A stretch of 64,000 nt of DNA, taken from the NCBI GenBank assembly GCA_021234155.1, contig JAJEKV010000041.1, positions 7,632,917-7,696,916 on the forward strand, given 5' to 3'. Source of the stretch: Isoetes taiwanensis. Lineage: Eukaryota; Streptophyta; Lycopodiopsida; Isoetales; Isoetaceae. Shown here piece after piece: positions 8,331 to 62,832 of the stretch (position 1 is the stretch's first letter; each line of letters opens with the position of its first letter). The notes under the pieces are model-generated. The model was not told the origin of the DNA. It saw nothing but the letters and a program-made list of their open reading frames with translations, and ran no database searches. The translations under genes and the position numbers were made by a program.

Positions 8331-10252
8331 GATTCCCCCGCAATTTGTGTGTTTGCTTTGAAGGCTGCAATATCCTTAGCCTTTTTCCTCATTATTGCAT
8401 TCTCAGCCTCATATCTATGCTCCTCAAGCTGCATTAATCTCACAAATCTGTCTTTTAGAGCATCATCCATTTCCAAATTGATCTGATAAGCCAGTCTGAG
8501 TGATGGAAGCTCTAATTCTATAGGCAGTACTGACTCTATCCCATACACCAAACTGAAAGGAGTGTGTTTTGTAGCCATTTTGATGGTAGTTCTATATGCC
8601 CAAAGTGCATCATGGAGTTTTAAATGCCAATCCTTTTTTGAAACACTGATGGTCTTTTTCAGGATAGATTTGAGAGTCTTATTGGTTGATTCTGCCTGGC
8701 CATTTCCCTGAGGGTAATAGGATGAACTCTTGGTATGCTTGACTTTCAGGGTGGCTAGAAGTAATGCAATTGCATGGTTAATGAACTGGCTGCCTCTATC
8801 AGAAACTATCTTGAAAGGGATGCCAATCGCACAGATATTTTCATGCAGAAATCTTGCAGTGGCTTGGGCATTGGCTTCTCTCAAAGGAATTGCCTCTGCC
8901 CATTTGGTAAAGTAATCAGTGGCAACTAATATAAACTGGTGTTGAGCTGAGGAAGGTGGGTCTATGGGGCCTATAAAATCCAGCCCCCACATTTGGAAAG
9001 GCCCAGGGGAAGTTATGGCAGTCAGGGCAGCTGGCTGCAAGGTTTTTCTACCAAAAATCTGACATTTATGGCAGCATTTTATAGTCTCATAACAATCCTT
9101 AAAGAGAGTAGGCCAGAAATATCCTGACCTTAGAATCTTTTTTGCAGTTGTATCTGCTGCAAAGTGTCCTCCACAAACTCCCTCATGACATGCTTCAATT
9201 ATCATTCTAGCCTCTTCTTCATCCACACATCTCAGCAAGACTCCTTCCTTGTCAACTTTGCATAGGATCCCTTCAATTAGCCTGAACTTCTTGCACTTGT
9301 CCCTGAATCTTCTTTCTTGACTGACACTCAAATTCTTAGGCAACTCATTGCTCTCCAGATAGTTTCTGATGTCAAATTGCCAGTCAGTGTTTTCTGCATC
9401 AAAAGAAATCAAGTTTGTTAGATTGTCATCAGCACATAAACCATCTTGATCTTCATGCTCAAACAACACATGTGGAAGATAAGAACTGGGATTCTCGATC
9501 AACTTTACCACCTTTACAGTAATATCATAAGCTTGGATCTTACAAGCCCACCTGCACAACTTGGCCTTTGGTTGCTTTTTTGCAAAAAGGAGTGAGAAAG
9601 GATTTTGTCTCATGAATACTTGCACCTGATTGTTTTGAAGAAGATGTCCTTGTCTCTCTATCAAAAACATCAGAGCTGCTGCACTTTTCTCCAACCTGGG
9701 ATATCTCAATTCAGTATCAGACCACATCTTGCTTGCAAAAGCAATTACATGGTCCCCTTGCAGCAGTGCCAAACCAATTGCTTTTTTTGTCACACTGATA
9801 TAAGCTTTGAAGGGTCTCTCTAGATCAGGAGGTTTTAGCAGGATAGATTTGCAAATGGCATCAATGATCTTGTCAAAAGAATTTTGCCATTGCTCATCCC
9901 AATCCACTAGGATGTGTTTACTTTCACTTTTGGAGAACTTTCCAACCTTTGTGAGGTTAGAGATTGGGCTCATAGTGTGGGAAAAATGAGCGACATACAT
10001 TCTCAAAAAGCTGGTCATCCCCATGAAGCTTTTAACCTGTTTGAGGGTTTTTGGAGGTGCCAGTTTCCTTAGGGCTTCAATCTTACTATCAGATATTTGA
10101 ATTCCTGCTGTAGATACTACATGCCCAAGCAATTCTCCCTTTGAGGATAAAAAAACACATTTTTTGGGGTTCAAACTCACTCCTCCCTTTCTACACAAGT
10201 CAACCAACATGGTTAGCATATCAAAATGTTTTTCCAAGAAGTTCCCAAACAA
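8327..10252 (-). pseudogene. B1 pol: RT thumb, degenerate RNase H, integrase
   Basis: 641-codon open frame. Residues 1-70 are the RT thumb (RKGGVSLNPKKCVF), then the connection (SFMGMTSFLRMYVAHF). Residues 148-225 are the gypsy RNase H, in which the usual TDAS is ISVT and the later TDH position is RQN, so two catalytic aspartates are missing; the EKSAAALMF glutamate remains. Integrase zinc ligands are H356, H363, C394 and C397; the core has D425, D485 and E521 (GNGQAESTNK). One residue is missing before GIPF relative to B2 and B3. The reading frame is separated from upstream RT by a frameshift around 10230, so no functional product is expected. Confidence 0.9.
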
Positions 10253-10923: not shown

Positions 10924-12384
10924 CTATTTGTCATCACTTGCATTGATTACCAGGATGGGGTATAGCTGTTGCAGATCTTTCTTCTCAAGCTCATCTTCTT
11001 GAATTGCTCCCTCAACCAAATGTTCCAGTAGCACACTCCTGCACAACGAAGTCGCTTCACCATTTTGCTCCCTTGGCACATGGCAAAGTTCCTGTGTTTC
11101 AAAGTTCTTCGGCCCAACATGGCTTGATTTTCGAAAGCTGCAACATGTCTTCACTCTTGGCCCGATATTCTCTCGATATTTGCCCGGAGACAAGCCGAGA
11201 GTCTCCAAAGATGATTACATCATCGATGTTTAGATTTCTTGCTTCTTGAAGACCTGCAATCAATGCCTTATACTCTGCCATATTAGAAGTGACATTTGGA
11301 TAAATTCTTCCTACTTTAGCAAGCAACCTGTTGGAAGCATCCTTAAGAATAGCAGCAGAAGATGCCACATTAAGCCTTTTGGAAACACCACCATCAAACC
11401 ATAAATAAGCAAAATTGCTTGATTTGGTTGAAGCTAATTCTTTTGGAATTTTTATGCTAGACTCTAACTCCACTGCATTCAGTTCAAATTCTCCACATGG
11501 ATGTGATAACAGCATTTCTTCTTCAATGAAATTCATGCTTTCAAACTCTCCTAACTTATTGTACAATGTTACCTTTTTCTTGCCATTTGAGATAGTACAT
11601 TCTCCTCTTGACCACACAGGCCTAGCATCTACTGTAGAAAGCCATTTTCTGCCCAAAAGTAAGTCATATATATCTGATTTGTCCCCTACTCCTTCAAAAG
11701 CAACCACAACAAAGTTAGCTGCAACCATTATTCCTTCAACATCAATAGGCACGTTGCTAACTATTCCCACTGGATTGATTTTAGAGTTAGAGAAAGATTT
11801 CAAGATCATTGGAGCTTTCTTGTCTATTTCTAGACCACATAGCCTCATGACATGGTGTGGCATTACATTCAAGGGTGATCCTCCATCTAGCAGAACCTTG
11901 GTTAAGATTTTTCCTTCCATTTTGGCAACACAAGTGAAAGCTCCAGGATCATGATCATTCTGAGTGAGCATGTGCTCCTCAATATGGTTTGTTAGGGCAA
12001 ATTCATCTTCTTTAGTAAGATTGAGTACCTTTTTTCTGTAAGAAGGGGCTATCTTGAGCAAGGTCAGCAAATGTACACAGATTTTTGAATTATTCAACAA
12101 ATATTCAAAGTCTTCACACTCTTTTTCTTTCTTGACAAATTTCTGAGCAGGAGGAGGAGGCACAGCCACTGCTTGCTCAGCATCCCTATGTTTCAAGTTG
12201 TCAGCTTCCTCATGTGTTGATTCTTTCTCTTTGGCATTATTCATCCTTCTGGTGTGGACAGCCATTATCTCCTCTTGTTCTTCAATTTCCTGCACAAACC
12301 TTATAGATGCACTTGGCTCATTAATTTTAGATTTTTCTTGTCTGGCAAAATATTCTTTGACACTGCACCTATCCTCATAATGTC
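10924..12384 (-). pseudogene. B1 gag end, protease and upstream RNase H
   Basis: The main frame, 11099-12295, holds the aspartic protease (VLLDGGSPLNVMP; D-G-G in place of D-T/S-G; LLLGRKWL flap-end motif) and the start of a type-I RNase H (FDGG, AEYKALIAGL, GDSRLV). It breaks after GDS. The frame 10924-11208 continues with the HVPREQN block. In the order of translation the RNase H comes before RT, as in B2, B3, A2 and A3. The frame is open above the first Met (12295) toward the CCHC region but is cut at 12384. Confidence 0.85.
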
Positions 12385-18221: not shown

Positions 18222-19778
18222 CTATAATCTATGCCACTCAGGGTTCACAATTTCTGTAATCACACCTGCATCTTTCATTTTATATAATTCCTCCTTGATT
18301 AGACCTAATAGAGAAGCATTGATCCTTCTTAACTTTTGTATAACAGGTTTCATACCTTCCTTGATCTTGATTTCAAACTCACAAATACCCACCAACTCAT
18401 CATAATCCCAAGCAAAGATATCCTTCCAATCATCAAAGAATTTAGTAACCAAAGCATTGTCCTCTTCTTTAAACAAATCACCAACATATAGTACCCTATC
18501 TAGACCCTTCTTATTGACCTTGACTTCCTTTACCTGTTTGTCTTCACTTGCATTGATTACCAGGATGGGGTATAGCTGTTGCAGATCTTTCTTCTCAAGC
18601 TCATCTTCTTGAATTGCTCCCTCAGCCAAATGTTCCAGTAGCACACTCCTGCACAACGAGCCTGCTTCACCATTTTGCTCCCTTGGCACATGGCAAAGTT
18701 CCCAGGTTTCAAAGTTCTTCAGTTCCAGCATGGCTTGATTTCTGAGCTGCAACATGTCTTCACTCTTGGCCTGATATTCTCCTGATATTTGAGAGTCTCC
18801 AAAGATGATTACATCACTGATGTTTAGATTTCTTGCTTCTTGAAGACCTGCAATCAATGCCTTATACTCTGCCATATTAGAAGTGACATTTGGATAAATT
18901 CTTCCTACTTTAGCAAGCAACCTGTTGGAAGCATCCTTAAGAATAGCAGCAGAAGATGCCACATTAAGCCTTTTGGAAACACCACCATCAAACCATAAAT
19001 AAGCAAAATTGCTTGATTTGGTTGAAGCTAATTCTTTTGGGATTTTTATGCTAGACTCTAACTCCACTGCATTCAGTTCAAATTCTCCACATGGATGTGA
19101 TAACAGCATTTCTTCTTCAATGAAATTCATGCTTTCAAACTCTCCTAACTTATTGTACAATGTTACCTTTTTCTTGCCATTTGAGATAGTACATTCTCCT
19201 CTTGACCACACAGGCCTAGCATCTACTGTAGAAAGCCATTTTCTGCCCAAAAGTAAGTCATATATATCTGATTTGTCCCCTATTCCTTCAAAAGCAACCA
19301 CAACAAAGTTAGCTGCAACCATTATTCCTTCAACATCAATAGGCACGTTGCTAACTATTCCCACTGGATTGATTTTAGAGTTAGAGAAAGATTTCAAGAT
19401 CATTGGAGCTTTCTTGTCTATTTCTAGACCACATAGCCTCATGACATGGTGTGGCATTACATTCAAGGGTGATCCTCCATCTAGCAGAACCTTGGTTAAG
19501 ATTTTTCCTTCCATTTTGGCAACACAAGTGAAAGCTCCAGGATCATGATCATCCTGAGTGAGCATGTGCTCCTCAATATGGTTTGTTAGGGCAAATTCAT
19601 CTTCTTTAGTAAGATTGAGTACCTTTTTTCTGTAAGAAGGGGCTATCTTGAGCAAGGTCAGCAAATCTACACAGATTTTCGAATTCTTCAACAAATGTTC
19701 AAAGTCTTCACACTCTTTTTCTTTCTTGACAAATTTCTCGAAAGCAGGAGGAGGAGGCATGACCCACCGCTTGCTCAA
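18222..19778 (-). pseudogene. B2 protease, RNase H and RT start
   Basis: 518-codon frame. Protease D100-G-G with LLLGRKWL; type-I RNase H with FDGG (about D264), AEYKALIAGL (about E304), GDSQ (about D328), HVPREQN and EAGSL (the last catalytic D is G in this copy). Then the linker and RT fingers (CEFEIKIKEG, KMKDAGVITEIVNPEW). Relative to B3 it lacks four or five residues after GDSQ and the VDKS of the RT start. This frame directly shows the RNase H between protease and RT on one polypeptide. Confidence 0.92.
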
Positions 19779-21033: not shown

Positions 21034-21036
21034 AAA

Positions 21037-26550: not shown

Positions 26551-26562
26551 GCTCTGATACCA
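26551..26562 (-). promoter_or_regulatory. primer-binding site of E (tRNA-iMet)
   Basis: Minus strand TGGTATCAGAGC, two bases after the LTR. This is the classical plant initiator-Met primer site and differs from the tRNA-Gln site of families A and B. Confidence 0.92.
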
Positions 26563-26564
26563 AT

Positions 26565-27267: not shown

Positions 27268-27272
27268 AATCA

Positions 27273-32399: not shown

Positions 32400-32595
32400 A
32401 GGTTCGTTTTCAGTTTTCTGCTTTTTAGAAATTCTATTTTGAAACTGTCTCAAACCCACTAGTATTCCTAAATATTGAATGAATTGTACTGCCCTATTTC
32501 TTTAGTATTAATTATTGTCTTCTAGTCACAATCACCCAAATTCGTAAAGGCTATTTAAGCTTTCTGAATTCCTTGCATGCAAGCCGCTCCAAAAC

Positions 32596-33376: not shown

Positions 33377-33734
33377 CTCACTCAGATTGTAATAGGCAGC
33401 TTTGATGCTGAACTATTTTGAACAGGGCATTATATGCCTATGTAATCTTGTCTTATGAATACAAACTTGGTTTATCATACTTGTTCCTGTACTCTTGATT
33501 TCTTTTAGTCTTGTTTGTTCTTTAATGTGAAGTCATTTGACTCACAATGTCTGTAACAGGCTGCTCAGTATTTTTAGTGAAATGTTTTGTAGCTCTAAAC
33601 TATATGTTGGAAACTTAGCTCTAAACTTATTTATTTTTTCATCATTATGTAAAAAATGCATGACAAAGAATTAAAGAGGTCAAATCGAATAGAATAGAAT
33701 TATGGATTTAATTTTTATTGTCTATAAAAACCAT

Positions 33735-36162: not shown

Positions 36163-38602
36163 TGTTGAAGGTGTTCCTGGCAAAACCTTCAACCTCAGTG
36201 GTTTAGAACCTCCAGGTTGCTTGAGGCAACCACTCTGAGTGCAAAGATTCCAGAAATAATGCTCAGAATTTCACTGGGAGTATGGTTCCCTGAAGGCCAA
36301 AAAGTCTGCTTCACAAAATAGTCTGCAGTATGTAATCTATTCAAGTTTTGGATATGAATTTTACTTCTCAAGATTCTTACTAAGGGACTGCAAAAACTTA
36401 GAAAGGTTTGACAAGGCTAAGCAGGCTAAAATTTGATCACTGACCCAGTCAATTTTTGGTCAATATCCCTGGCAGAGAGCTAGAATTTGAAACTCGATGT
36501 TGACAAGGAATTTTCTGGACTTGCAAATTCTACTCTGCTTAGATTCACCTGCACAACAAGGGCCAAATCTTCCTTTCGCCAAAAGAGGTCCTAATTTTTT
36601 TCTTTTTATGGTTTCTTGTCTAGAACTGTAAGGTAAGAACAATTATGAAAGAGGATGCTTTCTAATGAAGGGTTGCACGAGTGTCTAACATCACCTTGCT
36701 CAACATATCTTGTTTGGCAAGACTAATGCTCTAATCCTTGCTTCTTTGTGCTCAGTGCCTATCATGCACCATAATTGAATTCAAACATGCCAACTCAATA
36801 TAGTATTGGAGTTTAATCTTGACAAGAACTCAACTTTGGCCTTCTCTGAAATCACACTATATAGGCAGACTACTTATATTTGACGATCCGGGCAAATCAA
36901 CACACCTAGCCTCGGATGACAATTTTCTTTTAGGAATAGATTCTAATGCAACACAAACAGATAACTACAAGGGTCGGATTTTCAAGTGAATCAAACACTC
37001 AGGAGATACAATGCAAAATCCCAAGCTCATGGTCTTGGGCACATAATCAAATAGGTAAACATTCAAGTGATCCAGAGAATTAAGTCAATAATCCGGATCA
37101 AAGGTGAACATAGGAGGTCGGAATCAAGCTCAGGATCATCAAGCCGGTCCTTCTTCAAAGCCAGGAGTCTCTTCTTTGCCTCAAAGCCCTCAAATTTTCT
37201 TCTGTCAAAAAAACCCCTTTTGTAAATGCTCTGTTCTGTTGAGTTCTTGATCATTTCCCCTTGATTCTCTGTCTTTTAGCTTACAATAGGTATTCTTGGC
37301 ATTAAGCATGGTGATCTGGCCAGTTTAAGTCATGAGTTAGTGGTTTGTTTGGCCGAATTAAACAGATCTTGGCGTTTCCGGATTTTAGGGTTCATAAGGG
37401 TTCTAGCGAAATATCCCACAGGCTCGATTAGGTTTTGGCGACAAAGGTATATAAGGAAAAGAAAATCCACTATTTATAATTATTGCGTGCAATATCCACG
37501 TGGGATCCGGTACCTCCAACGCCCCACACGCCCGGATGTTCCACGCGGCATGGGAGATTGGCTGGAAAAAGAAATAGGGGGGGGTAGATAGGAAAATTTT
37601 TGCACACCAAAGCCCTATGGCACGATTCCCTATGAAGCAGCTATAATGTCCAAAATAGAACTTTTTTTCAAATTTCTTTTTTCCTAAGGGAATCTTTTTT
37701 TGCACTCTATAAGATTCTGAAATCTTTTCTCACAATGGAGCACTTTTGAATTTGGCAAAAATGAAGCTAAGGAGATGATGTGGCATTTGGAAATGATGAC
37801 AAGGCTAGGTGGGTATGACATGGCCGATGGGGATGATGACGTGTTAGCCAACTTGAGTTTGAAAATTCTTTCTAGTCAAAAATTTTGAATAATGTGGAGA
37901 TGATGTGTATGATAAGTGTGGAGTGATGAGGTGTCAATGGTGATGTGGCAACAATGATGCTAGTTTGATGCTTTGATATGGGTATTGATTTGAATATGGG
38001 AGTTTGACATGACATGGATGAGTATGATGACTTGGCACATGAAGTGAGGTGTAAAGTGACTTGGCCCATCAAGTGCTCATTTAGGAGCCAATTTCTTTTA
38101 TGGAGCAACTTTTAGCACCTCCTAGGGCACACTTGAATTTCCTTTAGGAATTTTGCAACTCTCTTTTAACTTTGGTCAAGTTGCATGGGATGTTGACTTC
38201 TGAGCGAGATTATGACCAAGTCAAGTCACTTTTGACCTTGTGGATGATCCAGCAAGTGTTCCATGGAGGTATATGAGCAAGGGATCAAAGTTCAATGGTA
38301 TTTTAGGATGGTGGAGTGAATGGAGAAGGGGATCAAAATGCCAAAGATGCCAAGATCACAAATAGCTACATACCATGGAATATTCTTCAAGGGGTCTTCT
38401 TTCTCCACTTTTCTTTATTTCCCTTGCTTGTTTGACCTCTTGTATCACTTGAGTGACTTGAGTCAATTGTCCTTCCCTTGCTCTTCAAATTCTTGGTGTA
38501 TGCTAGTGAAGCATTTCCCTATTGCCTTGCAAACCAGATCAAGATGAGAGGATTAGTGCAAAGATGTGCTTAGCTCTTCCATGCTGCCATGGCATGGCAG
38601 CA
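36163..38602 (-). repeat. 3' LTR of B3
   Basis: 2440 bp with terminal hairpin at 38582-38602 and U5 primer-like TAGAACCTCCA at 36204-36214. It retains TATATA (37448-37453) and G-box (37496-37503). Lacks a segment near 38240 (CAAGTGGGTGTT to GAGAGG) present in the 5' LTR. Confidence 0.93.
37448..37503 (-). promoter_or_regulatory. TATA and G-box in B3 3' LTR
   Basis: TATATA 37448-37453 and CCACGTGG 37496-37503 on the minus strand, same layout as B1 and B2. Confidence 0.5.
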
Positions 38603-39264
38603 TTATGCCAAACTAAAAGAAAAGGCTGGTCTACCAGCCCCTTTGACTTGTTGTTTGTACTTTATGACATAGCTCCAGCCAGTTGCCAATGTGAGAATAT
38701 GGTTGGCAACTCAATGACCTGCATATGGATTTGAAAGTGATAGATCTGGCATTATGAATGTATATGTGAATGATGTTCCTTTCAGATGAACCTGCTTGGA
38801 AAATAAATCTATTTATTTATGAGAAGCTACAGGATGGTGGTGTGACAGTAGCTTGGGAATTTTATGAAGATGTAGAGGGTTTTCAGATGTAATAAGGTCA
38901 ACTCCTGATCAGATGATAGATGGAGGCAGATATAAGGATGCACCTGCATATGAAAATAAAGCTTGTTAGTTTAGATGAGTTGCTGGTGTGGAGGTGATGG
39001 CAGCAACTCCAGATGATGAAGTATAATGTAATGTAGTGAAAGAGATGTGTGAGTGACATGTTCAGATGCACCTGCATGGAACTATGATCAGTATTAAATT
39101 ACTCCCTCAGTTGATCACGATCTGCATAGCCCTTTTGTCCTTGCAACACTAGAAACTCATTAGCACATGAACCATAACTTCAAAGCAGAACTTGATTTAC
39201 TAAAACATGCTTAATTAATTTTTGTTTTCTTCCTATTGAAGCTTTTTTCTATATTTTGCCTTTT

Positions 39265-39299
<35 letters not shown>

Positions 39300-39341
39300 C
39301 AATGCACTAACTAATCCTAACTATATCTTTCCTGAAAGATT
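38603..39341 (-). other. 3' untranslated region of B3
   Basis: No ORF. Conserved hairpin at 38682-38710, 79 nt from the LTR. A run of about 32 T (39266-39297) is A-rich on the element strand, an expansion absent from B1 and B2. Confidence 0.6.
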
Positions 39342-40217
39342 TTAGTTGAATAAAGCAAGGGCAACATGTTGTTGCCAATACCTTTTTAGGTGCACAATGT
39401 TGATAGGGTTCATCAATTCTCTGCCATCAGCAATATCTTTCAGCCAATATGAATCTCTGCCAGCTGTCCCTATCACTTCAAATGGTCCTTCCCAGAGATT
39501 CTCATATTTGGATGCTATCTCTTCCCTTGCCTTGTTCCACTTCAACACCAACTCTCCTGTTTTTAAGACTCCCTGCAATTTGTGTGCTGCTTTAAAAGCT
39601 GCAATATCTTTAGCCTTTTTCCTCATAACTGCATTCTCTGCCTCATATCTATGCTCCTCAAGCTGCATTAATCTTACAAATCTTTCTTTTAGAGCCTCAT
39701 CCATTTCCAAATTGATTTGATAAGCCAGTCTGAGTGATGGAAGTTCGAACTCTATAGGCAGTACTGATTCTATCCCATATACCAAACTGAAAGGAGTGTG
39801 TTTTGTAGCTATTTTGATGGTAGTTCTGTATGCCCAAAGTGCATCATGGAGCTTCAGATGCCAATCCTTTTTTGAAACACTGATGGTTTTCTTGAGGATA
39901 GATTTCAGAGTCTTATTGGTTGATTCTGCCTGGCCATTTCCCTGAGGGTAATAGGACGAACTTTTGGTATGTTTGACTTTCAAGGTGGCTAGTAGTAATG
40001 CAATTGTATGGTTGATGAACTGGCTACCTCTATCAGAAACTATTTTAAAGGGAATGCCAAATCTGGCACAAATGTTTTCATGCAGAAATCTTGCAGTAGC
40101 TTCTCTCAAAGGAATTGCCTCTGCCCATTTGGTAAAGTAATCAGTGGCCACTAATATAAACTGGTGTTGAGCTGAAGAAGGTGGATCTATGGGGCCTATA
40201 AAATCCAGCCCCCACAT
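39342..40217 (-). pseudogene. B3 integrase core and C-terminus
   Basis: 291 codons with D5, D62 and E98, the full catalytic triad, and the C-terminal HLKRYWQQ. Lacks four residues (NAQA) present in B2. Separated from the zinc domain by a shift in a T/A run near 40270. Confidence 0.9.
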
Positions 40218-40237
40218 TTGGAAAGGTCCAGGAGAAG

Positions 40238-40465
40238 TTATTGCAGTGAGGGCAGCTGGTTGCAGAGTTTTTTTTTACCAAAGATCTGACATTTATGGCA
40301 GCATTTAATAGTCTCATAACAATCCTTAAAAAGAGTGGGCCAAAAGTATCCTGACCTTAGAATCTTTTTTGCAGTTGTATCTGCTGCAAAGTGTCCTCCA
40401 CACACTCCCTCATGACATGCTTCAATTATCATTCTGGCCTCTTCTTCATCCACACATCTCAACAA
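40238..40465 (-). pseudogene. B3 integrase zinc-binding domain
   Basis: 75 codons with HEGVCGGH and CCHKCQIFGKK. Displaced from both neighbours by small indels (near 40270 and 40490). Confidence 0.87.
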
Positions 40466-41250
40466 GATCCCTTCCTTGTCAATTCTGCATAGGTACCTTC
40501 AATTAGCCTGAACTTTTTGCACTTGTCTTTGAACCTTCTCTCCTGACTGCTACTCAAATTCTTGGGCAACTCATTGCTCTCAAGATAATTCCTGATGTCA
40601 AATTGCCAGTCTGTATTTTCTGCATCAAAAGAAACCAAGTTTGTTAGATTATCATCATTGCATAAACCATCTTGTTCTTCATGCTCAAACAACACATGTG
40701 GAAGATAAGAGCTGGGATTCTCGATCAACTTTACCACCTTTACAGTAATATCATAAGCTTGGACCTTACAAGCCCACCTGCACAATTTAGCCTTTGGTTG
40801 CTTTTTTGCAAAAAGAAGTGACAAAGGATTTTGTCTCATAAATACTTGAACCTGATTGTTTTGAAGTAGATGTCCTTGTCTCTCTATCAAGAACATCAAG
40901 GCTGCTGCACTCTTTTCCAACCTAGGGTACCTTAATTCAGTATCAGACCACATCTTGCTTGCAAAAGCAATCACATGGTCCTCTTGCAGCAGTGCCAAAC
41001 CAATTGCCCTTTTTGTAACACTGATATAAGCTTTGAAAGGTTTCTCTAGATCAGGAGGTTTAAGTAGGATAGATTTACAAATGGCATCAATGATTTTGTT
41101 AAAAGAATCTTGGCATTGCTCATCCCAATCTATCAGGATATGTTTGCTCTCACTTTTGGAGAATTTTCCAACCTTTGTGAGGTTAGAAATTGGGCTCATA
41201 GTGTGGGAAAAATGAGGGACATACATTCTCAAGAAGCTGGTCATCCCCAT
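40459..41250 (-). pseudogene. B3 connection and degenerate RNase H
   Basis: 263 codons from the connection region (MGMTSFLRMYVPHFSHTMSP) through the gypsy RNase H with AYISVTKRAIGLALLQ, EKSAAALMF and FMRQNPLSLLF. The aspartates of the normal TDAS and TDH are missing, as in B1 and B2. The RNase H between protease and RT presumably replaced it. Confidence 0.88.
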
Positions 41251-41579
41251 AAAGCTTTTAACCTGCTTGAGGGTTTTTGGGGTGCTAGTTTCTTTAAAGC
41301 TTCAACCTTACTTTCAGATATTTGAATTCCTGCTGTAGACACTACATGTCCAAGCAATTCTCCTTTTGAGGACAAGAAAACACATTTTTTAGGGTTCAAA
41401 CTCACTCCTCCTTTTCTACACAAGGCAAACAACATGGTTAGCATATCAAAATGTTTTTCAAGAGAAGTTCCCAAACAAAGGTCATCCAAAAATACACGAA
41501 AAATATTGGCAGGCATTGGAATGTTGCAGATGCATTCATTAATCCAAATGGCATTCTCTTCATGGCAAATGTTCCCCAA
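41241..41579 (-). pseudogene. B3 RT catalytic box and thumb
   Basis: Frame with FLDDLCLGTSLEKHFDML, CRKGGVSLNPKKCVFLSS and GIQISESKVEALKKLAP. Its N-terminal residues are out of frame because 28 bp that encode FQRAMDTIF in B2 are deleted at about 41517. Confidence 0.88.
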
Positions 41580-43894
41580 GGTGTGATAAAAGAAGTTTTT
41601 GGCTGATCACTCTCCTTGATGCTTATTTGATTAAAACCTGAAAAGCCATCTAAGAATGAGTAAATCTCCTTCCCTGCTACAGCATGCAACATTTCTTCCA
41701 GAAATGGCAATGGATAGCAATCTTTGATAGTGGCTTTGTTTAGATCTCTATAATCTATGCAAATTCTAATGGTCTTGTTTTTCTTCTCAACAGGAACAAT
41801 GCAAGATAGCCACTCAGGATTTTCAATTTCTGCAATCACACCTGCATCTTTCATCTTGTATAACTCTTCCTTGATTAAGCCTAATAAAGAAGCATTAATC
41901 CTTCTTAACTTTTGAATAACAGGTTTCATACCTTCCTTGATCTTGATTTCAAACTCACAAATGCTTTTGTCAACACCAACCAACTCATCATAATCCCAAG
42001 CAAAGATATCTTTCCAATCATCAAAGAATTTAGTAACAAAAGCATTGTCCTCCTCTTTAAACAAATCACCAACATACAATACCCTATCTAGACCCTTCTT
42101 GTTGACCCTAATTTCCTTTACCTGTTTATCCTCACTTGCATTGATTACCAGGATGGGGTATAGCTGTTGCAGATCTTTCTTCTCGAGCTCATCTTCTTGT
42201 ATTGCTCCCTCAGCTAAGTGTTCCAGTAGCACACTCCTGCATAGAGAATCTGCTTCACAATTTTGCTCCCTTGGCACATGGCAAAGCTCCCAGGTTTCAA
42301 AATCCTTTAGCTCCAGCATAGCTTGGTCTCTGAGCTGCATCATGTCTTCACTTTTAGCCTGATATTCTCCTGATATTTGTCTGCAGGCAAGCTGAGAGTC
42401 TCCAAAGATGACTACATCACTGATGTTCAGATTTCTTGCTTCTTGAAGACCTGCAATCAATGCCTTGTACTCTGCCATATTAGAAGTGATATTTGGATAA
42501 ATTCTTCCTACTTTAGCCAGCAATCTATGGGAAGCATCCTTGAGAATGGCAGCAGAAGATGCCACATTAAGCCTTTTTGAGACACCACCATCAAACCATA
42601 AATAAGCAAAATTACCTGATTTAGCTGAAGCCAATCCCTTTGGGATTTTCATGCTGGACTCCAACTCTATTGCATTCAATTCAAATTCTCCACATGGATT
42701 TGATAGCAACATTTCTTCTTCAATGAAATTCATGCTTTCAAACTCTCCTAATTTATTGTACAATGTTACTTTTGTTTTGCCATTTGAAATAGTACATTCT
42801 CCTTTTGACCATACAGGCCTAGCATCGACTGTAGAAAGCCACTTCCTGCCCAAAAGCAAGTCATATATATCTGATTTGTCTTCTATTCCTTCAAAAGCAA
42901 CCACAACAAAATTAGCTGCAACCATTATTCCTTCAACATTAATAGGCACGTTGCTAACTATTCCAACAGGATTGATTTTTGTGTTTGAGAAAGACTTCAA
43001 GATCATTGGAGCCTTCTTGTCTATTTCTAAACCACATAGCCTCATAACATGGTGTGGCATTACATTCAGGGGTGATCCTCCATCTAGCAGAACCTTGGTT
43101 AAGATTTTTCTCCCCATTTTGGCAACACAAGTGAAAGCCCCAGGATCATAATCATCCTGGGTGAGCATGTGCTCCTCAATATGGTTTCTTAGAGCAAACT
43201 CATCTTCTTTAGTTAGATTGAGAACTTTTTTCCTATAAGAAGGAGCTATCTTGAGCAAGGTCAGCAAGTCTACACAGATTTTTGAATTCTTTAACAAATA
43301 TTCAAAGTCCTCACACTCTTTTTCTTTCTTGATAAATTTTTGAGTAGGAGGAGGGGGCACAGCCACTGCTTGCTCAGCATCCTTATGTTTCAAGATGTCA
43401 GCTTCCTCATGTATTGATTCTCTTTCTTTGGCATTATTCATTCTTCTGGTGTGGACAGCCATTATCTCCTCTTGTTCCTCAATCTCCTGCACAAACCTTA
43501 TAGATGCATTTGGCTCACTAGCTTTAGATTTTTCTTGTCTGGCAAAATACTCTTTAACACTGCATCTATCCTCATAATGTCCCACAGCTTTACAAAATGC
43601 ACACACAGGGCATTCTTTTCCAAAATGTCCTCTCTTTCCACACTTTGTGCATGGCCTATACCAGCAGTAGTCAGAAGAATGAGTGTCTCTAAAGCAATGC
43701 ACACATGGAGGGTAAGTTTTCTTTTCAAATTTTGAGCTTTTCAGCTCTTGAAGTTGTTTGGTTACCTCAACCAGTGCCTCAGACACTTTGGTGATCTCTG
43801 CTCTTACATCTGCTGCAGGAGCCTCAGCATCTTCCATCTTTACCTTCTTCTTCTCATTTTGGACAGCATAAACAGGTATAGGTGCTGCTCCCAT
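41438..43894 (-). pseudogene. B3 gag end, protease, RNase H and RT
   Basis: 818-codon open frame, the clearest view of the clade's domain order. Three CCHC knuckles: C64-C67-H72-C77, C82-C85-H90-C95, C98-C101-H106-C111. Protease D271-G-G with LLLGRKWL (346-353). Type-I RNase H with D435, E475, D499, H539, D549, all catalytic positions present. RT from about 610: IDYRDL (713-718), motif A FLDGFSGF (747-754), LMNASATFQ (785-793), then frame loss at the 28-bp deletion. One frame spans gag to RT, so a single gag-pol polyprotein is likely. Confidence 0.93.
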
Positions 43895-43925
43895 ATACTC
43901 TTGCTCATAATCTGGAAAGAAAGGG

Positions 43926-44567
43926 TCACTTGGTGATCATATCTGCAATTTCAGTAGCCTTGGTGAAAGCTTTGTGTATTGTGTCAAATCCTTCTTGTTT
44001 TTGGATCTTCATTAGCTTTCTGTGTATCCTTGGTCTGCTGCTTAATCCTGTGATAAAAGAAGCCACTAGATGCAAGGTATGGTTAGGAACATGATTAATT
44101 TGGCATTTGACAAGATAGAGATTGAATCTTTCCACATATTGGTGCACACTCTCACCATGCTTAATGCGAAAAGTTTGCAACTCAAAAATTAAATCTTGGG
44201 GATCCAAGACTTTTCCAAAAAGTGCCAAAAACTTTTTAACCAGTTCTTCCCAAGAATTGGTGCCTAAACTTATAACATACTCTAACCAAGCCCTGACTTC
44301 ATCATTTTTGAAACATTTTTTAAACTCAGAGAACTTACAGCCTTTTTTGTAACCATATTCTTGGTAGTACTCTTCAAAAGTCTTGAGGAAATTGTTGGCA
44401 TTCATGCTTGGATCAAAAGTAGGGACTGGAATAGGCATGTTTAACTCAAAGTATTGACAGGGCATACCTGAATTTGCTTGTATAGTGACAGTAGGTGTTG
44501 CAGCAGCTTCATGATTGTCTTGTGCTTCAGTAGGCTCAGATGCCTCATTAGTTCTTCTGGGTGCCAT
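43926..44567 (-). pseudogene. B3 gag N-terminal part
   Basis: 213 codons from ATG 44567 (43-nt leader): MAPRRTNEASEPTEAQD, capsid core (VRAWLEYVISLGTNSWEEL, KHGESVHQYVERF, FITGLSSRPRIHRKLMKIQ). A deletion of about 25 bp near 43936 relative to B2 shifts the frame into the 818-codon segment. Confidence 0.9.
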
Positions 44568-44589
44568 GAGTTCAGATTCCAGGAAAATG

Positions 44590-44607
44590 ATCTTGGTAGG
44601 ACCTCCA
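44590..44607 (-). promoter_or_regulatory. primer-binding site of B3 (tRNA-Gln type variant)
   Basis: Minus strand TGGAGGTCCTACCAAGAT. The complement ends TAGGACCTCCA, which fits the tRNA-Gln 3' end even more directly than the TAGAACCTCCA form. Confidence 0.75.
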
Positions 44608-44610
44608 AAA

Positions 44611-47099
44611 TGTTGAAGGTGTTCCTGGCAAAACCTTCAACCTCAGTGGTTTAGAACCTCCAGGTTGCTTGAGGCAACCACTCTGAGTGCAGAGATTCCA
44701 GAAATAATGCTCAGAATTTCACTGGGAGTATGGTTCCCTGAAGGCCAAAAAGTCTGCTTCACAAAATAGTCTGCAGTATGTAATCTATTCAAGTTTTGGA
44801 TATGAATTTTACTTCTCAAGATGCTGACACTTCTTACTAAGGGACTGCAAAAACTTAGAAAGGTTTGACAAGGCTAAGCAGGCTAAAATTTGATCACTGA
44901 CCCAGTCAATTTTTGGTCAATATCCCTGGCAGAGAGCTAGAATTTGAAACTCGATGTTGACAAGGAATTTTCTGGACTTGCAAATTCTACTCTGCTTAGA
45001 TTCACCTGCACAACAAGGGCCAAATCTTCCTTTCGCCAAAAGAGGTCCTAATTTTTTTCTTTTTATGGTTTCTTGTCTAGAACTATAAGGTAAGAACAAT
45101 TATGAAAGAGGATGCTTTCTAATGAAGGGTTGCACGAGTGTCTAACATCACCTTGCTCAACATATCTTGTTTGGCAAGACTAATGCTCTAATCCTTGCTT
45201 CTTTGTGCTCAGTGCCTATCATGCACCATAATTGAATTCAAACATGCCAACTCAATATAGTATTGGAGTTTAGTCTTGACAAGAACTCAACTTTGGCCTT
45301 CTCTGAAATCACACTATATAGGCAGACTACTTATATTTGACGATCAGGGCAAATCAACACACCTAGCCTCGGATGACAATTTTCTTTTAGGAATAGATTC
45401 TAATGCAACACAAACAGATAACTACAAGGGTCGGATTTTCAATTGAATCAAACACTCAGGAGATACAATGCAAAATCCCAAGCTCATGGTCTTGGGCACA
45501 TAATCAAATAGGTAAACATTCAAGTGATCCAGAGAATTAAGTCAATAATCCGGATCAAAGGTGAACATAGGAGGTCGGAATCAAGCTCAGGATCATCAAG
45601 CCGGTCCTTCTTCAAAGCCAGGAGTCTCTTCTTTGCCTCAAAGCCCTCGAATTTTCTTCTGTAAAAAAAACCCCTTTTGTAAATGCTAGTTCTTGATCAT
45701 TTCCCCTTGATTCTCTGTCTTTTAGCTTACAATAGGTATTCTTGGCATTAAGCATGGTGATCTGGCCAGTTTAAGTCATGATTTAGTGGTTTGCTTGGCC
45801 GAATTAAATAGATCTTGGCGTTTCCGGATTTTAGGGTTCATAAGGGTTCTAGCAAAATATCCCACAGGCTCGATTAGGTTTTGGCGACAAAGGTAAGGAA
45901 AAGAAAATTCACTATTTATAATTATTGCGTGCAATATCCACGTGGGATCCGGTACCTCCACCGCCCCACACGCCCGGATGTTCCACGCGGCATGGGAGAT
46001 TGGCTGGAAAAGAAATAGAAGGGGGGTAGATATGAAAATTTTTGCACCCCAAAGCCCTATGGCACGATTCCCTATGAAGCAGCTATAATGTCCAAAATAG
46101 AACTTTTTTTCAAATTTCTTTTTTCCTAAGGGAATCTTTTTTTGCACTCTATAAGATTCTGGAATCTTTTCTCACAATGGAGCACTTTTGAATTTGGCAA
46201 AAATGAAGCTAAGGAGTGGATGATGTGGCATTTGAAATGATGACAAGGCTAGGTGGGTATGACATGGCCGATGGGGATGATGACGTGTTAGCCAACTTGA
46301 GTTTGAAAATTCTTTCTAGTCAAAAATTTTGAATAATGTGGAGATGATGTGTATGATAAGTGTGGAGTGACGAGGTGTCAATGGTGATGTGGCAACAATG
46401 ATGCTAGTTTGATGCTTTGATATGGGTTTTGATTTGAATATGGGAGTTTGACATGACATGGATGAGTATGATGACTTGGCACATGAAGTGAGGTGTAAAG
46501 TGACTTGGCCCATCAAGTGCTCATTTAGGAGCCAATTTCTTTTATGGAGCAACTTTTAGCACCTCCTAGGGCACACTTGAATTTCCTTTAGGAATTTTGC
46601 AACTCTCTTTTAACTTTGGTCAAGTTGCATGGGATGTTGACTTCTGAGCGAGATTATGACCAAGTCAAGTCACTTTTGACCTTGTGGATGATGAAGCAAG
46701 TGGGTGTTCCATGGAGGTGTGTTTTGACTAGAAAGAACTTTCAAAGTCAAGTTTGACTTTGAGAGGTATATGAGCAAGGGATCAAAGTTCAATGGTATTT
46801 TAGGATGGTGGAGTGAATGGAGAAGGGGATCAAAATGCCAAAGATGCCAAGATCACAAATAGCTACATACCATGGAATATTCTTCAAGGGGTCTTCTTTC
46901 TCCACTTTTCTTCATTTCCCTTGCTTGTTTGACCTCTTGTATCTCTTGAGTGACTTGAGTCAATTGTCCTTCCCTTGCTCTTCAAATTCTTGGTGTATGC
47001 TAGTGAAGCATTTCCCTATTGCCTTGCAAACCAGATCAAGATGAGAGGATTAGTGCAAAGATGTGCTTAGCTCTTCCATGCTGCCATGGCATGGCAGCA
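44611..47099 (-). repeat. 5' LTR of B3 (TATA lost)
   Basis: 2489 bp, close to the 3' LTR. Hairpin 47079-47099; U5 primer-like copy 44652-44662. At 45888-45902 the sequence AAAGGTAAGGAAAAG lacks the TATA of AAAGGTATATAAGG, while the G-box (45938-45945) remains. Confidence 0.93.
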
Positions 47100-47190: not shown

Positions 47191-47568
47191 TGTTGACCTT
47201 AAACCTGGCTTAAAGGTCAACCACAAGGAACCAATTCGAGTTTTCACTCAAATTGGGGTTAGAACCTCCAGATCACTTAAGGTGATCAGTCTATGCAAGA
47301 TAATTTCAAAGACAAGTTCAAAAATTTGAAGTTCTATACCTTTCCCATTTCCAGAAATTGACACCTTTGCCAAAACAGCTGTGGTGTTGATATGTAGATC
47401 GATTTTTTGGGTCAGACACTATAGACTTGGTCAAAAAAGTTGTAGGTAACCAACAGTAAAGCCTCTGACCAAGTCAGGAACTTAATCTGTGAGTTATTCG
47501 AGCTCAAAGTGCAGTCAAAATTTGGTCAATAGAAGTCAAATCTGAAAACAGTGATCAGAGATTGGGAT
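47191..47568 (-). repeat. 3' LTR remnant of A2
   Basis: Matches 50033-50410 (U5 end) of the 5' LTR with only a few differences (for example TCAGACACTATAG versus TCAGGCACTATAG). Ends at AGATTGGGAT, where the pol frame begins. Confidence 0.92.
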
Positions 47569-48798
47569 ATGAGTAATTTCCCAAGAAGTAAAGTAAGCAA
47601 GCATTTCCATTACCTGATTTCTCAAGGACTCCATGTCAGCATTCTTGGCCTGATACTCACCACTAACCTGTCTGCACACTAACTGGGAATCTCCATAGAT
47701 GTGTATGATTGAAATATCCATAGCCTTGGCTTCTTGAAGACCTGCAATCAAAGCCTTGTACTCTGCTACATTAGAAGTGATTTGGGGAAAAATCCTTCCT
47801 ACCTTAGCCAAGAGTTTATTGGAGGTATTCTTCAGTATAGCTGCAGATGAAGCTACATTTAGTTTCTTTGAAATCCCCCCATCAAACCACAAACATCCTT
47901 CTTTCCCATTCTCAGAAGGTAGTGCACACTCTCTAATCAAAGGAATCAGATCTGTTTTCTTTGTGCTAGGGGTTGCTAAACTGTAAGATCCTAGGGGCTC
48001 TTCTATAAGCATTTCTTTAACAAAGTGTACCTCTTCCCTGAAGCCATAAGAACCATCCTGGTTGTAAATTGTAGCTACTTGAGTGCCATTTGAAATGGTG
48101 CATCTCCCTTCAGACCAGATTGGCCTAGCATCAACTGTAGCCATCCACCTTCTCCCTAGCAAGAGATCATATATATCTGCATCTTCCCCTAGATCTTCAA
48201 AAGCAACAACAACAAAATTGGCAGCTACAACAATGCCTTCAGTATTAACAGGAACCTTGGTCACAATTCCAACTGGTGCTATTTTAGCATTAGAAAAGGA
48301 TTTTAACAAAACAGATGACCTTTTATCTATCTCGAGCCCACATTTTTTCATAACATGATAGGGCATGATATTTAGAGGTGAACCTCCATCAAGCAACACA
48401 TTGGAAAAAGAATAACCTCCTAAAGTAGCTGAACACATAAATGCACCTGGGTCTTCCTCATTTTGAGCTAAAATAAGATTAGTAGCATTTGCAACACCTA
48501 CACAAGCCACTGCCTCACTAAAAGTAGTTTGTTGTAATAACTTTTTCCTATAACCAGGGGCAATTTTTAATAAGGTAAATAAGTCCACACTTACTTTGGA
48601 ATTTTTCAGTAAAGCATCCAACTCATCAAGATCTTGATCTTTCTTACCATACTTTTGTTGAGGAGGTGGAGCTATTTCTTGGGGAGGAGCTTCCATGACA
48701 GGGGATAGTGGCAATGTTGATTTCCTGGAATGCTCTGGAACAAATTTGTTAGGCTCAGCAGGTCTATAGGTATCTCCCATACTCCTGGTTTGTACCAT
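47536..48798 (-). pseudogene. A2 protease and RNase H, fused to LTR
   Basis: 420-codon frame. Protease D137-G-G (VLLDGGSPLNIMP) and LLLGRRWM; type-I RNase H with D306 (FDGG), E346 (AEYKALIAGL), D370 (GDSQLV) and H410 (ITHIP). After that the frame runs into LTR sequence and the last catalytic Asp block is lost. Confirms the protease then RNase H order in family A. Confidence 0.92.
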
Positions 48799-49078
48799 CC
48801 ATCACTTCCTCAGTTTTTGGCATTTCTGTAGCCTGCACAAACCTTATAGAGCTAGTAGATTCAGCAAACCTTACATGTGGAGCTGCCTCAGGTTTCTTTT
48901 CCCTCTCTTGCTTGGCAAAATATTCTTTAACAGAGCACCTAAGGTCAGTACGGCCAATCTCCTTGCAAAAAGCACAAACTGGACATTCCCTACCAAAATG
49001 ACCTTTCTTTTTACATTTAGGACATATTTGCCAATAACAAATATCAGCTGGATGTGAAGTTCTGTTACAATGATACAT
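48764..49078 (-). pseudogene. A2 gag zinc knuckles
   Basis: 104 codons with CHCNRTSHPADIC, CPKCKKKGHFGREC and CAFCKEIGRTDLRC. The third has R in place of the ligand His. The frame is shifted by one deletion near 49075 from the main gag frame. Confidence 0.85.
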
Positions 49079-49989
49079 TCAGGATAAGTTCTACCTGTTC
49101 TGCTTGCTTTGAGCTCCACAAGTTGCTTAGTTACTTCTGCTAAAGCCTCAGTTACCTTTGTCAAGTCAGCTTTGACCTCTGAAATTTGAGAATCAGCCTC
49201 CTCATCTTTGGTTTTTTTCTTTTCTTTATGCACAGCATAGATAGGAACATAATGATGAGGTTCATAAGGGCCATCAGTGGCATCAGTGTAAAAGGGGTCA
49301 TGTTGAAAGCTATGATGTTTCTCTGGCAGGATAGAGAGCATTTTGGTCAATTCAGTAGTCTTAGCAAAAACCTTGTAGATGGAATCAAAACCTTCTGCAG
49401 CTTGTATCTTGATAAGCTTTCTATGAATTTCTGGTCTAGAAGATAGGCCTTTGATAAAAGAGGACACCAAAAAGAGCATGGGGACAGTAACTTGGCATTT
49501 CTGACATCTACTCATGAAGGTGCTGAATCTTTCCTTATACTGACTAACACTCTCACCTGCATAAATAGAAAAATTTTGCAATTCATTAACAAGATCCTTA
49601 GGAGCAGCAAGCTTTCCAAACCTGTCTAAAAACTTGGTAACAAGATCATCCCAAGAAGTGGTTCCCATAAGCTTCTCATAAGTCAGCCAAGCACCAGCTT
49701 CACTCTCCTCTTTAAAACACTTTTCAAATTGTGAGAACTTGCACCCTTTCTTAAAGCCATAATCCCTATAGTAATCTTCAAAAATTCTAAGAAAAGTATT
49801 AGCACTCATACTGGAATCAAAAGTAGGCAATGGAGTGGGCACATTCAATTCAAGCTGGTAAGGTAAACCTTGAAGTAATCCAGTTGAAAAACTTGGGGGA
49901 AGAGATCTATCTCTGCAGGGTTCTGAAGTGTCATGTTCTTCCATTGATATTGGTTCTTGCTCTGTTGGAAATTTCTGCTTTGGAGCCAT
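48871..49989 (-). pseudogene. A2 gag
   Basis: 372-codon frame from ATG 49989 (43-nt leader). Capsid core as in A3 (AGAWLTYEKLMGTTSWDDL, GESVSQYKERFSTFM, SSFIKGLSSRPEIHRKL) and a coiled-coil-like stretch (EVKADLTKVTEALAEVTKQ). A one-base deletion at about 49075 moves the last part out of frame of the knuckles. Confidence 0.9.
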
Positions 49990-50011
49990 GAGTTCTCAAA
50001 ATCCAGGTAGA

Positions 50012-50029
50012 ATCTCGGTAGAACCTCCA
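50012..50029 (-). promoter_or_regulatory. primer-binding site of A2 (tRNA-Gln type)
   Basis: TGGAGGTTCTACCGAGAT on the minus strand, 3 nt from the LTR; same as A1, A3 and B2. Confidence 0.75.
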
Positions 50030-50032
50030 AAA

Positions 50033-61019: not shown

Positions 61020-62101
61020 GCTACAGAAATGCCAAAGACTGAGGAGGTGATGGTGGTACAAACCAGGAGTATGGGAGATGCCTATAGACCTGCTGAGCCT
61101 AACAAATTTGTTCCGAGCATTCCAGAAATCAACATTGCCACTACCCCCTGTCATGGAAGCTTCCCCCCAAGAAATAGCTCCACCTCCTCAACAAAAGTAT
61201 GGTAAGAAAGATCAAGATCTTGATGAGTTGGATGTTTTACTGAAAAATTCCAAAGTGAGTGTGGACTTATTTACCTTACTAAAAATTGCCCCCTGGTTAT
61301 AGGAAAAAGCTATTACAACAAACTACTTTTAGTGAGGCGTTGGCTTGTGTAGGTGTTGCAAATGCTACTAATCTTATTTTAGCTCAAAATGAGGAAGACC
61401 GTGTGCATTTATGTGTTCACCACTCTAGGAGGTTATTCTTTTTCCAATGTGTTCTTTGGATGGAGGTTCACCTCTAAATATCATGCCTTATCATGTTATG
61501 AAAAAATGTGGGCTCGAGATAGATAAAAGGTCATCTGTTTTGTTAAAATCCTTTTCTAATGCTAAAATAGCACCAGGTTGGAATTGTGACTAAAGTTCCC
61601 ATGTTATCATTGAAGGCATTGTTGTAGCTGCCAATTTTTTGTTGTTGTTGCTTTTGAAGATCTAGGAGAAGATGCAGAGATATATATGATCTCTTGCTAG
61701 GGAGAAGGTGGATGGCTACAGTTGATGCTAGGCCAACTGGTCTCGAAGGAAGATGCACCATTTCAAATGGCACTCGTGTAGCTACAATTTACAACTGGGA
61801 TGGTTCTTATGGCTTCAGGGAAGATGTACACTTTGTTAAAGAAATGCTTATAGAAGAGCCCCTAGGATCTTATAGTTTAGCAACCCCTAGCACAAAGAAA
61901 ACTGATCTGATTCCTTTGATTAGAGAGTGTGCACTACCTTCTGAGAATGGGAGAGAAGGTTGTTTATGGTTTGATGGAGGGATTTCAAAGAAACTAAATG
62001 TAGCTTCATCTGCAGCTATACTGAAGGATACCTCCAATAAACTCTTGGCTAAGGTAGGAAGGATTTTTCCCCAAGTAACTTCTAAGAGTACAAGGCTTTG
62101 A
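61020..62101 (+). pseudogene. A3 protease and first half of RNase H
   Basis: Frames 61078-61302, 61286-61477 and 61694-62101 carry the spacer (LDELDVLLKNSKVSVDLF), a broken protease (61430-61700; the DGG and LLLGRRW parts are in different frames) and the RNase H start (CLWFDGGISKKLNVASSAAI, LLAKVGRIFPQV). A small deletion at 62085 removes the residues before EYKAL and shifts the frame. Confidence 0.85.
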
Positions 62102-62832
62102 TTGCAGGTCTTCAAGAAGCTAAGGCTATGGATATTTCAATTATACACATCTATGGAGATTCTCAGTTAGTTTGCAGACAGGTTAGTGGTGAGTATCAGG
62201 CCAAGAATGCTGACATGGAATCCTTGAGAAATCAGGTAATGGGAATGCTTTCTTACTTTACTTCTTGGGAAATTACTCATATTCCAAGGGAGCAGAATTG
62301 GAAAGCTGATGCTTTGTGCAGAGACACTTTAATGACTTATTTATCTGAAGGAGCTATCCCAGAGGAAGATCTTGATGAGGACGAGGCCAAGGAACTCTGT
62401 CCTATATTAGTTATAAATGCATCACAAGAAGAAGCAACCCATGAGGTTATAATCAATAAGAATGGCCAGCAAAGAACTCTATTCGTGGGAGATCTCTTTG
62501 ACACACAAAACAAGGAAGAAATTACCAAATTCTTTGAAGAAAGAAATGATGTGTTTGCTTGGGATTATTCTGAGCTCATTGGTATCAAGGAAGAGGTATG
62601 TCAATTTGAAATTAAAATCAAAGAAGGGTGTAAACCTGTTTTCCAGAAGTTAAGGAGGATCAATGCTTCACTTTTAGATCTAATCAAGGAAGAGTTGCAT
62701 AAAATGTTGGATGCAGGTGTTATTGTGGAAATTATTAATCCCGAATGGGTGTCATGCATTGTTCCAAAGGAGAAAAAGAATGGTGCTTTGAGAATTTGTA
62801 TAGATTATCGAGACCGAATAAAGCCACCATAA
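62098..62832 (+). pseudogene. A3 second half of RNase H and RT start
   Basis: 244 codons: IAGLQEAKAMDIS, IYGDSQLVCRQVSGEYQAK, HIPREQNWKADALCR (catalytic D, H, D present), linker, then RT fingers (CQFEIKIKEGCKPVFQKLRR, MLDAGVIVEIINPEW, RICIDYRD). It directly shows RNase H upstream of RT in a family A copy. Ends at a shift near 62812. Confidence 0.92.

What the first reader, a model, noticed from the sequence alone, without database searches (positions are those of the whole stretch)
41438..43894. Complete type-I RNase H located between protease and RT
In the 818-codon frame of B3 the order is three zinc knuckles, protease (D271), RNase H (D435, E475, D499, H539, D549), then RT (from about 610). 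B1 (10924-12295), B2 (18222-19778), A2 (47536-48798) and A3 (62098-62832) show the same order on both strands, so it is not a rearrangement of one copy. In known plant Tat elements the extra archaeal-like RNase H lies after RT and the original RNase H, just before integrase. A position ahead of RT suggests a separate capture or a domain move, and may define an undescribed lineage.
Basis: partly seen in the sequence, partly recalled or inferred. Interest (0 to 1): 0.9.

Follow-up and report, generated by a model that had tools for sequence, protein, structure and literature searches.

The report
Known Tat retrotransposon with upstream RNase H
Jumping genes in this plant genome, probably a quillwort, carry a second RNase H enzyme, with an intact active site, ahead of the reverse transcriptase; the layout is real and common here, but it has already been described for this retrotransposon group in club-mosses and gymnosperms.

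Summary
In the B3 frame a complete type-I RNase H (residues 434-554; D435, E475, D499, D549) lies between protease and reverse transcriptase (RT), and a Ty3-type native RNase H lies after RT. In 75 of 75 genome places examined (best matches of four searches, not a random sample) an RNase H lies directly ahead of RT. The upstream domain is archaeal-like (Arg542; best PDB matches are archaeal and bacterial RNase HI). Its four acids are intact in 37 of 37 loci, while the native RNase H has lost nearly all of them, yet both have a low median dN/dS (0.08 and 0.10). So the upstream domain is most likely the working RNase H and the native one a structural tether.

The claim of an undescribed lineage fails. 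The same order is in print as the mark of TatI (club-mosses) and TatII (gymnosperms) (PMC6317226), and as Tat structure #2 (PMC10508981). The host matches Isoetes taiwanensis, a lycophyte, by assembly size. With more prokaryotic RNase HI in the tree, the upstream domain groups with other Tat RNases H (99/86), which does not support a separate capture. Open: whether the upstream position is ancestral.

The parts
42209..42622 (-). B3 upstream archaeal-like RNase H (aRNH), complete: D435, E475, D499, R542, D549 of the 818-codon frame
   Evidence: Pfam RVT_3 E=2e-21; tblastn map; residues; AF2 model mean pLDDT 95.5
42755..43159 (-). B3 protease
   Evidence: DGG motif at D271; no Pfam protease hit
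43535..43714 (-). B3 Gag nucleocapsid zinc knuckles, three CCHC patterns
   Evidence: read; Pfam scores one of them, under its cut-off
41513..42094 (-). B3 reverse transcriptase, first part (frame broken after it)
   Evidence: Pfam RVT_1
40684..41133 (-). B3 native Ty3-type RNase H after RT, catalytic acids lost
   Evidence: PF17917 E=4e-18; alignment; PDB 4ol8 match E=4e-5
39897..40492 (-). B3 integrase zinc-binding domain and core
43926..44567 (-). B3 Gag (capsid) frame
   Evidence: PF03732 E=1.2e-9
36163..47099 (-). whole B3 element: LTRs 36163-38602 and 44611-47099 (97.4% identical over 2125 bp and 99.4% over 337 bp), 5-bp target duplication GTTTC
18621..19019 (-). B2 upstream aRNH (short deletion, last Asp lost)
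11011..11425 (-). B1 upstream aRNH (frameshifted, last Asp lost)
47548..47913 (-). A2 upstream aRNH, cut short where it meets an LTR-like repeat; no RT follows
61943..62349 (+). A3 upstream aRNH, frameshifted and with a stop; RT follows at 62464
9458..9907 (-). B1 native RNase H, catalytic acids lost; RNase H-like fold predicted at moderate confidence

Best explanation
These are Ty3/gypsy LTR retrotransposons of the Tat lineage with domain order Gag, zinc knuckles, protease, archaeal-like RNase H (aRNH), RT, native RNase H, integrase: the arrangement published as TatI/TatII and as Tat structure #2. The host is most likely Isoetes taiwanensis. Mechanism: during reverse transcription the aRNH, encoded ahead of RT, cuts the RNA strand of the RNA/DNA hybrid, while the native RNase H after RT has lost its catalytic acids and serves as a folded tether, as proposed for dual-RNase H retroviruses and Tat. 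Shown: the order, the intact aRNH site, the loss of the native site, and low dN/dS in both domains. Inferred: enzymatic activity, the tether role, and whether aRNH acts joined to RT or as a separate cleaved protein.
For: Order: Pfam; window map; aRNH directly before RT in 79 of 79 genome loci, which are 75 places (30 of 30, 19 of 19, 30 of 30; places checked). Archaeal type: 6 PDB matches, led by 4e19, 3aly and 2ehg (that these are Halobacterium and Sulfolobus enzymes is recalled), with 3hst, recalled as bacterial, among them; Arg542. Active site: D/E/D/D in 37 of 37 loci; native RNase H first Asp kept in 0 of 33 read, Glu in 1 of 30, third acid in 0 of 29 (an alternative alignment gives Asp in 3 of 29), last Asp in 0 of 9. 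Constraint: median dN/dS PR 0.07, aRNH 0.08, RT 0.09, native RNase H 0.10. RT: the smallest supported set with window and other rows (96/94) holds the 3 window rows, 10 rows with aRNH before RT and 7 rows in which no aRNH was seen. Literature. Host: 1,658,258,908 bp in 1110 sequences against 1658.30 Mb in 204 scaffolds plus 909 contigs.
Against: No named TatI, Tat F or Tat G sequence could be fetched, so membership of a named subclade was not tested by sequence. The supplement of PMC10508981 could not be read, so whether I. taiwanensis was one of its three clubmoss species is unknown. Loci were the best matches of four searches, three of them with an RNase H query, so intact aRNH copies are favoured. 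dN/dS pairs are not independent and their spread is wide for RT and native RNase H (interquartile 0.06-0.20 and 0.05-0.27). The native-domain model is of moderate confidence (five models, mean pLDDT 50.4-77.4). The host name rests on assembly size and counts (1110 against 1113 sequences), not on a marker gene.
Confidence: 0.87

Rival explanations
1. The lycophyte Tat line captured its upstream RNase H separately, from a cellular RNase HI, independently of other Tat elements.
For: In a first tree with 8 rows labelled cellular, 7 of them found by similarity to the window domain, the window aRNH grouped with 6 of the 8 (96/97). The aRNH phylogeny is called unresolved in PMC10508981.
Against: With 22 rows of cellular RNase HI (21 picked by hand from the 80 loci, plus 4e19) the Tat aRNHs fall on one side of a branch (98/85, bootstrap not settled); with native RNase H as outgroup they form one clade (99/86). 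Caveats: the scan was seeded with rows mostly found by similarity to the window domain; two short proteins of unnamed origin (P0214, P0216), first labelled cellular, fall inside the Tat clade; no plant cellular archaeal-like RNase H was in any tree.
Confidence: 0.08
2. The upstream position is ancestral for this branch of Tat, and the retrovirus-like position after the native RNase H, seen in flowering plants, is a later move.
For: The aRNHs of this genome (upstream) are sister to all the other Tat aRNHs sampled, within which upstream and downstream types split. All 75 places examined have the upstream order, also those found with a downstream-type aRNH as query. One clade of all upstream-type aRNHs is not rejected (AU p=0.077).
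Against: PMC10508981 argues that the downstream structure #1 came first because hornworts, ferns and most land plant groups have it; no aRNH named as hornwort, moss or fern was in my trees. In my aRNH trees the other upstream rows group with the downstream ones, not with this genome's.
Confidence: 0.3
3. The order is an accident of a rearranged or nested copy, not a property of a family.
For: The window is a nest of damaged copies; B1, B2, A2 and A3 are broken.
Against: 75 of 75 places share the order; 37 of the loci fall into nine groups down to about 34% identity in aRNH; 11 proteins from outside this genome also have it, one of them a doubtful fusion and four with only part of the aRNH.
Confidence: 0.01
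4. Both RNases H work, splitting the labour, instead of one being a dead tether.
For: The native domain has a median dN/dS (0.10) close to that of aRNH (0.08) and is predicted to keep an RNase H-like fold (mean pLDDT 77.4).
Against: The native domain lacks the catalytic acids in nearly every locus read.
Confidence: 0.05

Closest known systems
TatI (Neumann et al. 2019, PMC6317226; passages seen)
   Same: Ty3/gypsy, aRH between PROT and RT, native RH after RT, club-moss host
Tat structure #2, clusters F and G (Biryukov and Ustyantsev 2023, PMC10508981; whole main text read)
   Same: aRH upstream of RT inside pol, native RH degraded, clubmoss host
   Different: Cluster F or G not assigned: reference sequences and supplement not available; the main text does not mention Isoetes
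TatII / structure #2 of gymnosperms (Tat E and J)
   Same: Same order; the window's RT groups with rows of this order and with PITA rows, recalled as Pinus taeda (96/94); native RH degraded in those rows checked
   Different: The comparison rows with this order are mostly of unnamed origin, taken as gymnosperm-like by kinship; their aRNHs group with the downstream type, not with this genome's
Ogre / Retand / structure #1 Tat of flowering plants
   Same: Archaeal-like aRNH plus degraded native RH
   Different: aRNH lies after the native RH and before integrase (12 proteins with that order, 9 of them from named flowering plants)
Retroviral dual RNase H and Odin elements (PMC9040795; passages seen)
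   Same: Second RNase H gained, native one degraded to a tether
   Different: There the gained RNase H is of Fungi/Metazoa type and downstream of the native one (PMC10508981); here it is archaeal-like and ahead of RT

Membership tests
Tat lineage of Ty3/gypsy | Additional archaeal-like RNase H in the polyprotein | tested here: met
   RVT_3 E=2e-21; PDB RNase HI matches; Arg542
Tat lineage of Ty3/gypsy | Degraded catalytic core of the native RNase H | tested here: met
Tat lineage of Ty3/gypsy | RT phylogeny within Tat | tested here: met
   Window RT groups with rows that have aRNH before RT plus 7 rows without a seen aRNH (96/94), then with RT-RH-aRNH-INT rows (94/92); reference rows were classed by their own domain order, not by published name
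TatI / TatII / structure #2 | aRNH between protease and RT | tested here: met
TatI / Tat F / Tat G specifically | RT and INT within the named lycophyte clade | not testable with these tools
   No named reference sequences or supplement available
TatI | Club-moss (lycophyte) host | tested here: inconclusive
   Assembly size and counts match I. taiwanensis; no marker gene tested
TatI | Dominant PBS type and TSD length | tested here: inconclusive
   5-bp TSDs for B3 and B2, none found for A2; a TGG-starting putative PBS after the 5' LTR; the PBS type of TatI was not read and the tRNA not identified
Retroviral dual RNase H | His-type (Fungi/Metazoa-like) RNase H downstream of the native one | tested here: not met
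   Arg type, ahead of RT (types from PMC5348765)
Ogre/Retand (structure #1) | aRNH between native RH and integrase | tested here: not met

The most novel reading that the evidence does not exclude
In the Tat branch that includes lycophyte and seed-plant elements, the RNase H ahead of RT is the ancestral arrangement, kept in every copy examined in this lycophyte; the retrovirus-like position of flowering plants is a later relocation, so the native RNase H died before the retrovirus-like layout arose, not because of it.
Probability: 0.3. Interest if true: 0.5.

Novelty: already known. Interest (0 to 1): 0.22.

Why it matters
It removes a false lead (no undescribed arrangement) while adding numbers to a known puzzle. 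In this genome the aRNH-before-RT order shows no exception in the 75 places examined, and the native RNase H, without its catalytic acids, still has a low dN/dS. That makes this host a good place to ask how an RNase H encoded ahead of RT can serve reverse transcription, and which position of the extra RNase H came first.

Tried and rejected
Separate capture: suggested by a first small tree, not upheld after wider sampling of cellular RNase HI. In one search two native-RNase-H rows (B3, A3) were cut out of frame by me; the tree was rebuilt with correct frames, from which I left out 9 rows (7 cellular, P0157, P0014) to save time. Search for downstream-type copies in the same genome with a downstream-type aRNH as query: none among the 30 loci fetched of 150 scored matches. 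Idea that A2 is a special element with Gag, protease and RNase H only: set aside, since the repeat on its left (47191-47574) seems to be only part of an LTR and abuts the cut RNase H, which fits an ordinary deletion; whether that junction recurs in the genome was not tested (one search did not complete). Isoetes with Tat in print: (terms Isoetes, Tat, retrotransposon, gypsy) gave 2 papers, neither on these elements by title; (lycophyte, LTR retrotransposon, TatI, Athila; at least 3) gave 23 papers, of which 10 were listed and judged by the listing alone. The text pattern for Arg found it in 33 of 37 Isoetes loci and failed to match in 4; in the 80 cellular loci it often caught the wrong place, so I cite only B3's Arg and the invariant column of alignment A2. 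Fold comparison with the PDB was not accepted.

Full report
What is there. The minus-strand frame 41438-43894 holds 818 codons. In order it has three CCHC patterns, a protease with a DGG motif at D271, an RNase H domain (Pfam RVT_3 residues 434-554, E=2e-21; Pfam RNase_H under its cut-off at E=0.0011) and the first part of an RT (RVT_1 residues 702-794, E=1.2e-12). Downstream on the same strand, in broken frames, come the rest of RT, the native Ty3-type RNase H (PF17917, E=4e-18) and integrase. The element has LTRs of about 2.4 kb and a 5-bp target duplication, 36163-47099. That archaeal-like RNases H bear Arg and Fungi/Metazoa ones His there is from PMC5348765 (passages); that this Arg lies seven before the last Asp is recalled from Sulfolobus RNase HI.

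Other copies in the window. Five copies of the upstream domain were found. RT follows in four of five; A2 has none. B1 and A3 are frameshifted within the domain (A3 also has a stop), B2 has a small deletion, B1 and B2 lack the last Asp, and A2 is cut before it. Only B3 is complete.

The genome. The window lies in a genome of 1,658,258,908 bp in 1110 sequences. The I. taiwanensis paper reports 1658.30 Mb in 204 scaffolds and 909 unplaced contigs (PMC8566536, passages). This is a match by size and counts, not by a marker gene. RVT_3 has at least 150 matches over cut-off, the scored part of 2502 candidates. I examined the 79 loci that four searches fetched: 8 of 69 matches, 30 of 150, 11 new of 12 shown among 150 and 30 of 150. 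Four pairs are the same place (L090/L130, L093/L132, L095/L133, L003/L153), leaving 75 places, one of which is B3 itself and two of which share an identical core (L126, L129). RNase H lies directly before RT in 79 of 79 loci: 30 of 30, 19 of 19, 30 of 30. A protease was found ahead of it in 78 of 79 (not L103; in L102 it lies about 1.3 kb further off). A native RNase H was found behind RT in 74 of 79 (28 of 30, 19 of 19, 27 of 30); the stretches are short, so a miss says little. The upstream domains of 37 loci fall into nine groups at 75% identity, the furthest about 34% identical. No locus had the flowering-plant order, even when a downstream-type aRNH was the query. This is not a random sample and cannot exclude rare exceptions.

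Which RNase H works. The upstream domain matches RNase HI in the PDB (6 distinct sequences, led by 4e19, 3aly, 2ehg) and is predicted with high confidence as an RNase H fold (mean pLDDT 95.5); a structural comparison with the PDB could not be run. In 37 loci (L002-L008 and L089-L118) the four acids are present in 37 of 37. The native domain matches Ty3 RNase H in the PDB weakly (E=4e-5), but its first Asp is kept in 0 of 33 loci read, the Glu in 1 of 30, the third acid in 0 of 29 (3 of 29 under an alternative alignment) and the last Asp in 0 of 9. Of 20 reference proteins in the alignment, the first Asp is lost in 9 of 9 that carry an aRNH in the same protein and kept in 7 of 7 that the RT tree places outside the aRNH-bearing clade; the other four (P0026, P0044, P0100, P0121), without a seen aRNH but grouped with aRNH-bearing rows, have also lost it. 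Median dN/dS is 0.07 for protease (283 pairs), 0.08 for aRNH (173), 0.09 for RT (226; interquartile 0.06-0.20) and 0.10 for the native RNase H (135; 0.05-0.27); only pairs with dS 0.3-1.2 were counted and they are not independent. A domain without its catalytic acids that is still constrained, with an RNase H-like fold predicted at moderate confidence (best model mean pLDDT 77.4, others 50.4-70.9), fits a structural tether. Enzymatic activity was not tested.

Kinship. The smallest supported RT set that joins the window rows with others (96/94) has 10 rows with aRNH before RT and 7 rows in which none was seen; the next node (94/92) adds 9 rows with aRNH after the native RNase H. Among proteins outside this genome, 11 have aRNH before RT (P0067 is a doubtful fusion; P0010, P0011, P0013 and P0098 hold only part of the domain) and 12 have it after the native RNase H. 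Most of the first kind are of unnamed origin. In the widest RNase H tree (62 rows, native RNases H as outgroup) all Tat aRNHs form one clade (99/86), which also holds two short proteins of unnamed origin, P0214 and P0216; this genome's rows (100/98) are sister to all the others (100/97), among which upstream (97/76) and downstream types split. A clade of all upstream-type aRNHs is not rejected (p-AU 0.077). An earlier, smaller tree put the window aRNH with cellular RNase HI (96/97); most of its cellular rows had been found by similarity to the window domain, and two native rows were out of frame.

Literature. Neumann et al. 2019 (PMC6317226, passages): aRH between PROT and RT is characteristic of TatI (club-mosses) and TatII (gymnosperms); TatIII has it after INT; Ogre and Retand between RH and INT. 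Biryukov and Ustyantsev 2023 (PMC10508981, whole main text): structure #2, aRH upstream of RT, in three clubmoss species (Tat F and G) and all gymnosperm genomes studied; native RH degraded in all aRH-bearing structures; single capture preferred, aRH tree unresolved. Its main text does not name Isoetes; its supplement was not readable here. The 2015 paper that first described the Tat aRH subclades is not held.

Verdict. The claim of an undescribed lineage is refuted by the literature as far as the domain order goes; membership of a named subclade was not tested by sequence. Separate capture is not supported. What remains open, and would be worth a proper study with hornwort, fern and plant nuclear RNase H sequences, is which position of the extra RNase H is the older one.

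Noticed in passing
L001-L008, L089-L129; window 17428-18150: The RT catalytic motif reads FLDD instead of YLDD in many of these families: 31 FLDD and 14 YLDD among 49 loci, none found in 4.
   Followed up: partly
24235-27268: A short LTR-type element: direct repeats 24235-24939 and 26565-27268 are 99.3% identical and enclose a Gag frame, 25288-26526 (PF03732); no match to this family's protease, RT, RNase H or integrase lies between them. It resembles Gag-only non-autonomous elements (recalled as TR-GAG).
   Followed up: partly
31168-35090: A Myb/SANT-like frame (31168-31806, plus strand) near a DDE_Tnp_4 transposase frame (33735-35090, minus strand), as in PIF/Harbinger DNA transposons (that pairing is recalled).
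   Followed up: no
5607-23556: B1 and B2 lie head to tail at 97% identity; B2 (12519-23556) has its own 5-bp duplication CTTTG, which suggests an insertion next to or within B1 and not a simple tandem copy.
   Followed up: partly
47191-50417: A2 has no RT, native RNase H or integrase match; its RNase H frame runs straight into an LTR-like repeat.
   Followed up: partly
L126 and L129: Two places on different contigs share an identical 300-bp core, which suggests very recent copies or an assembly duplicate.
   Followed up: no
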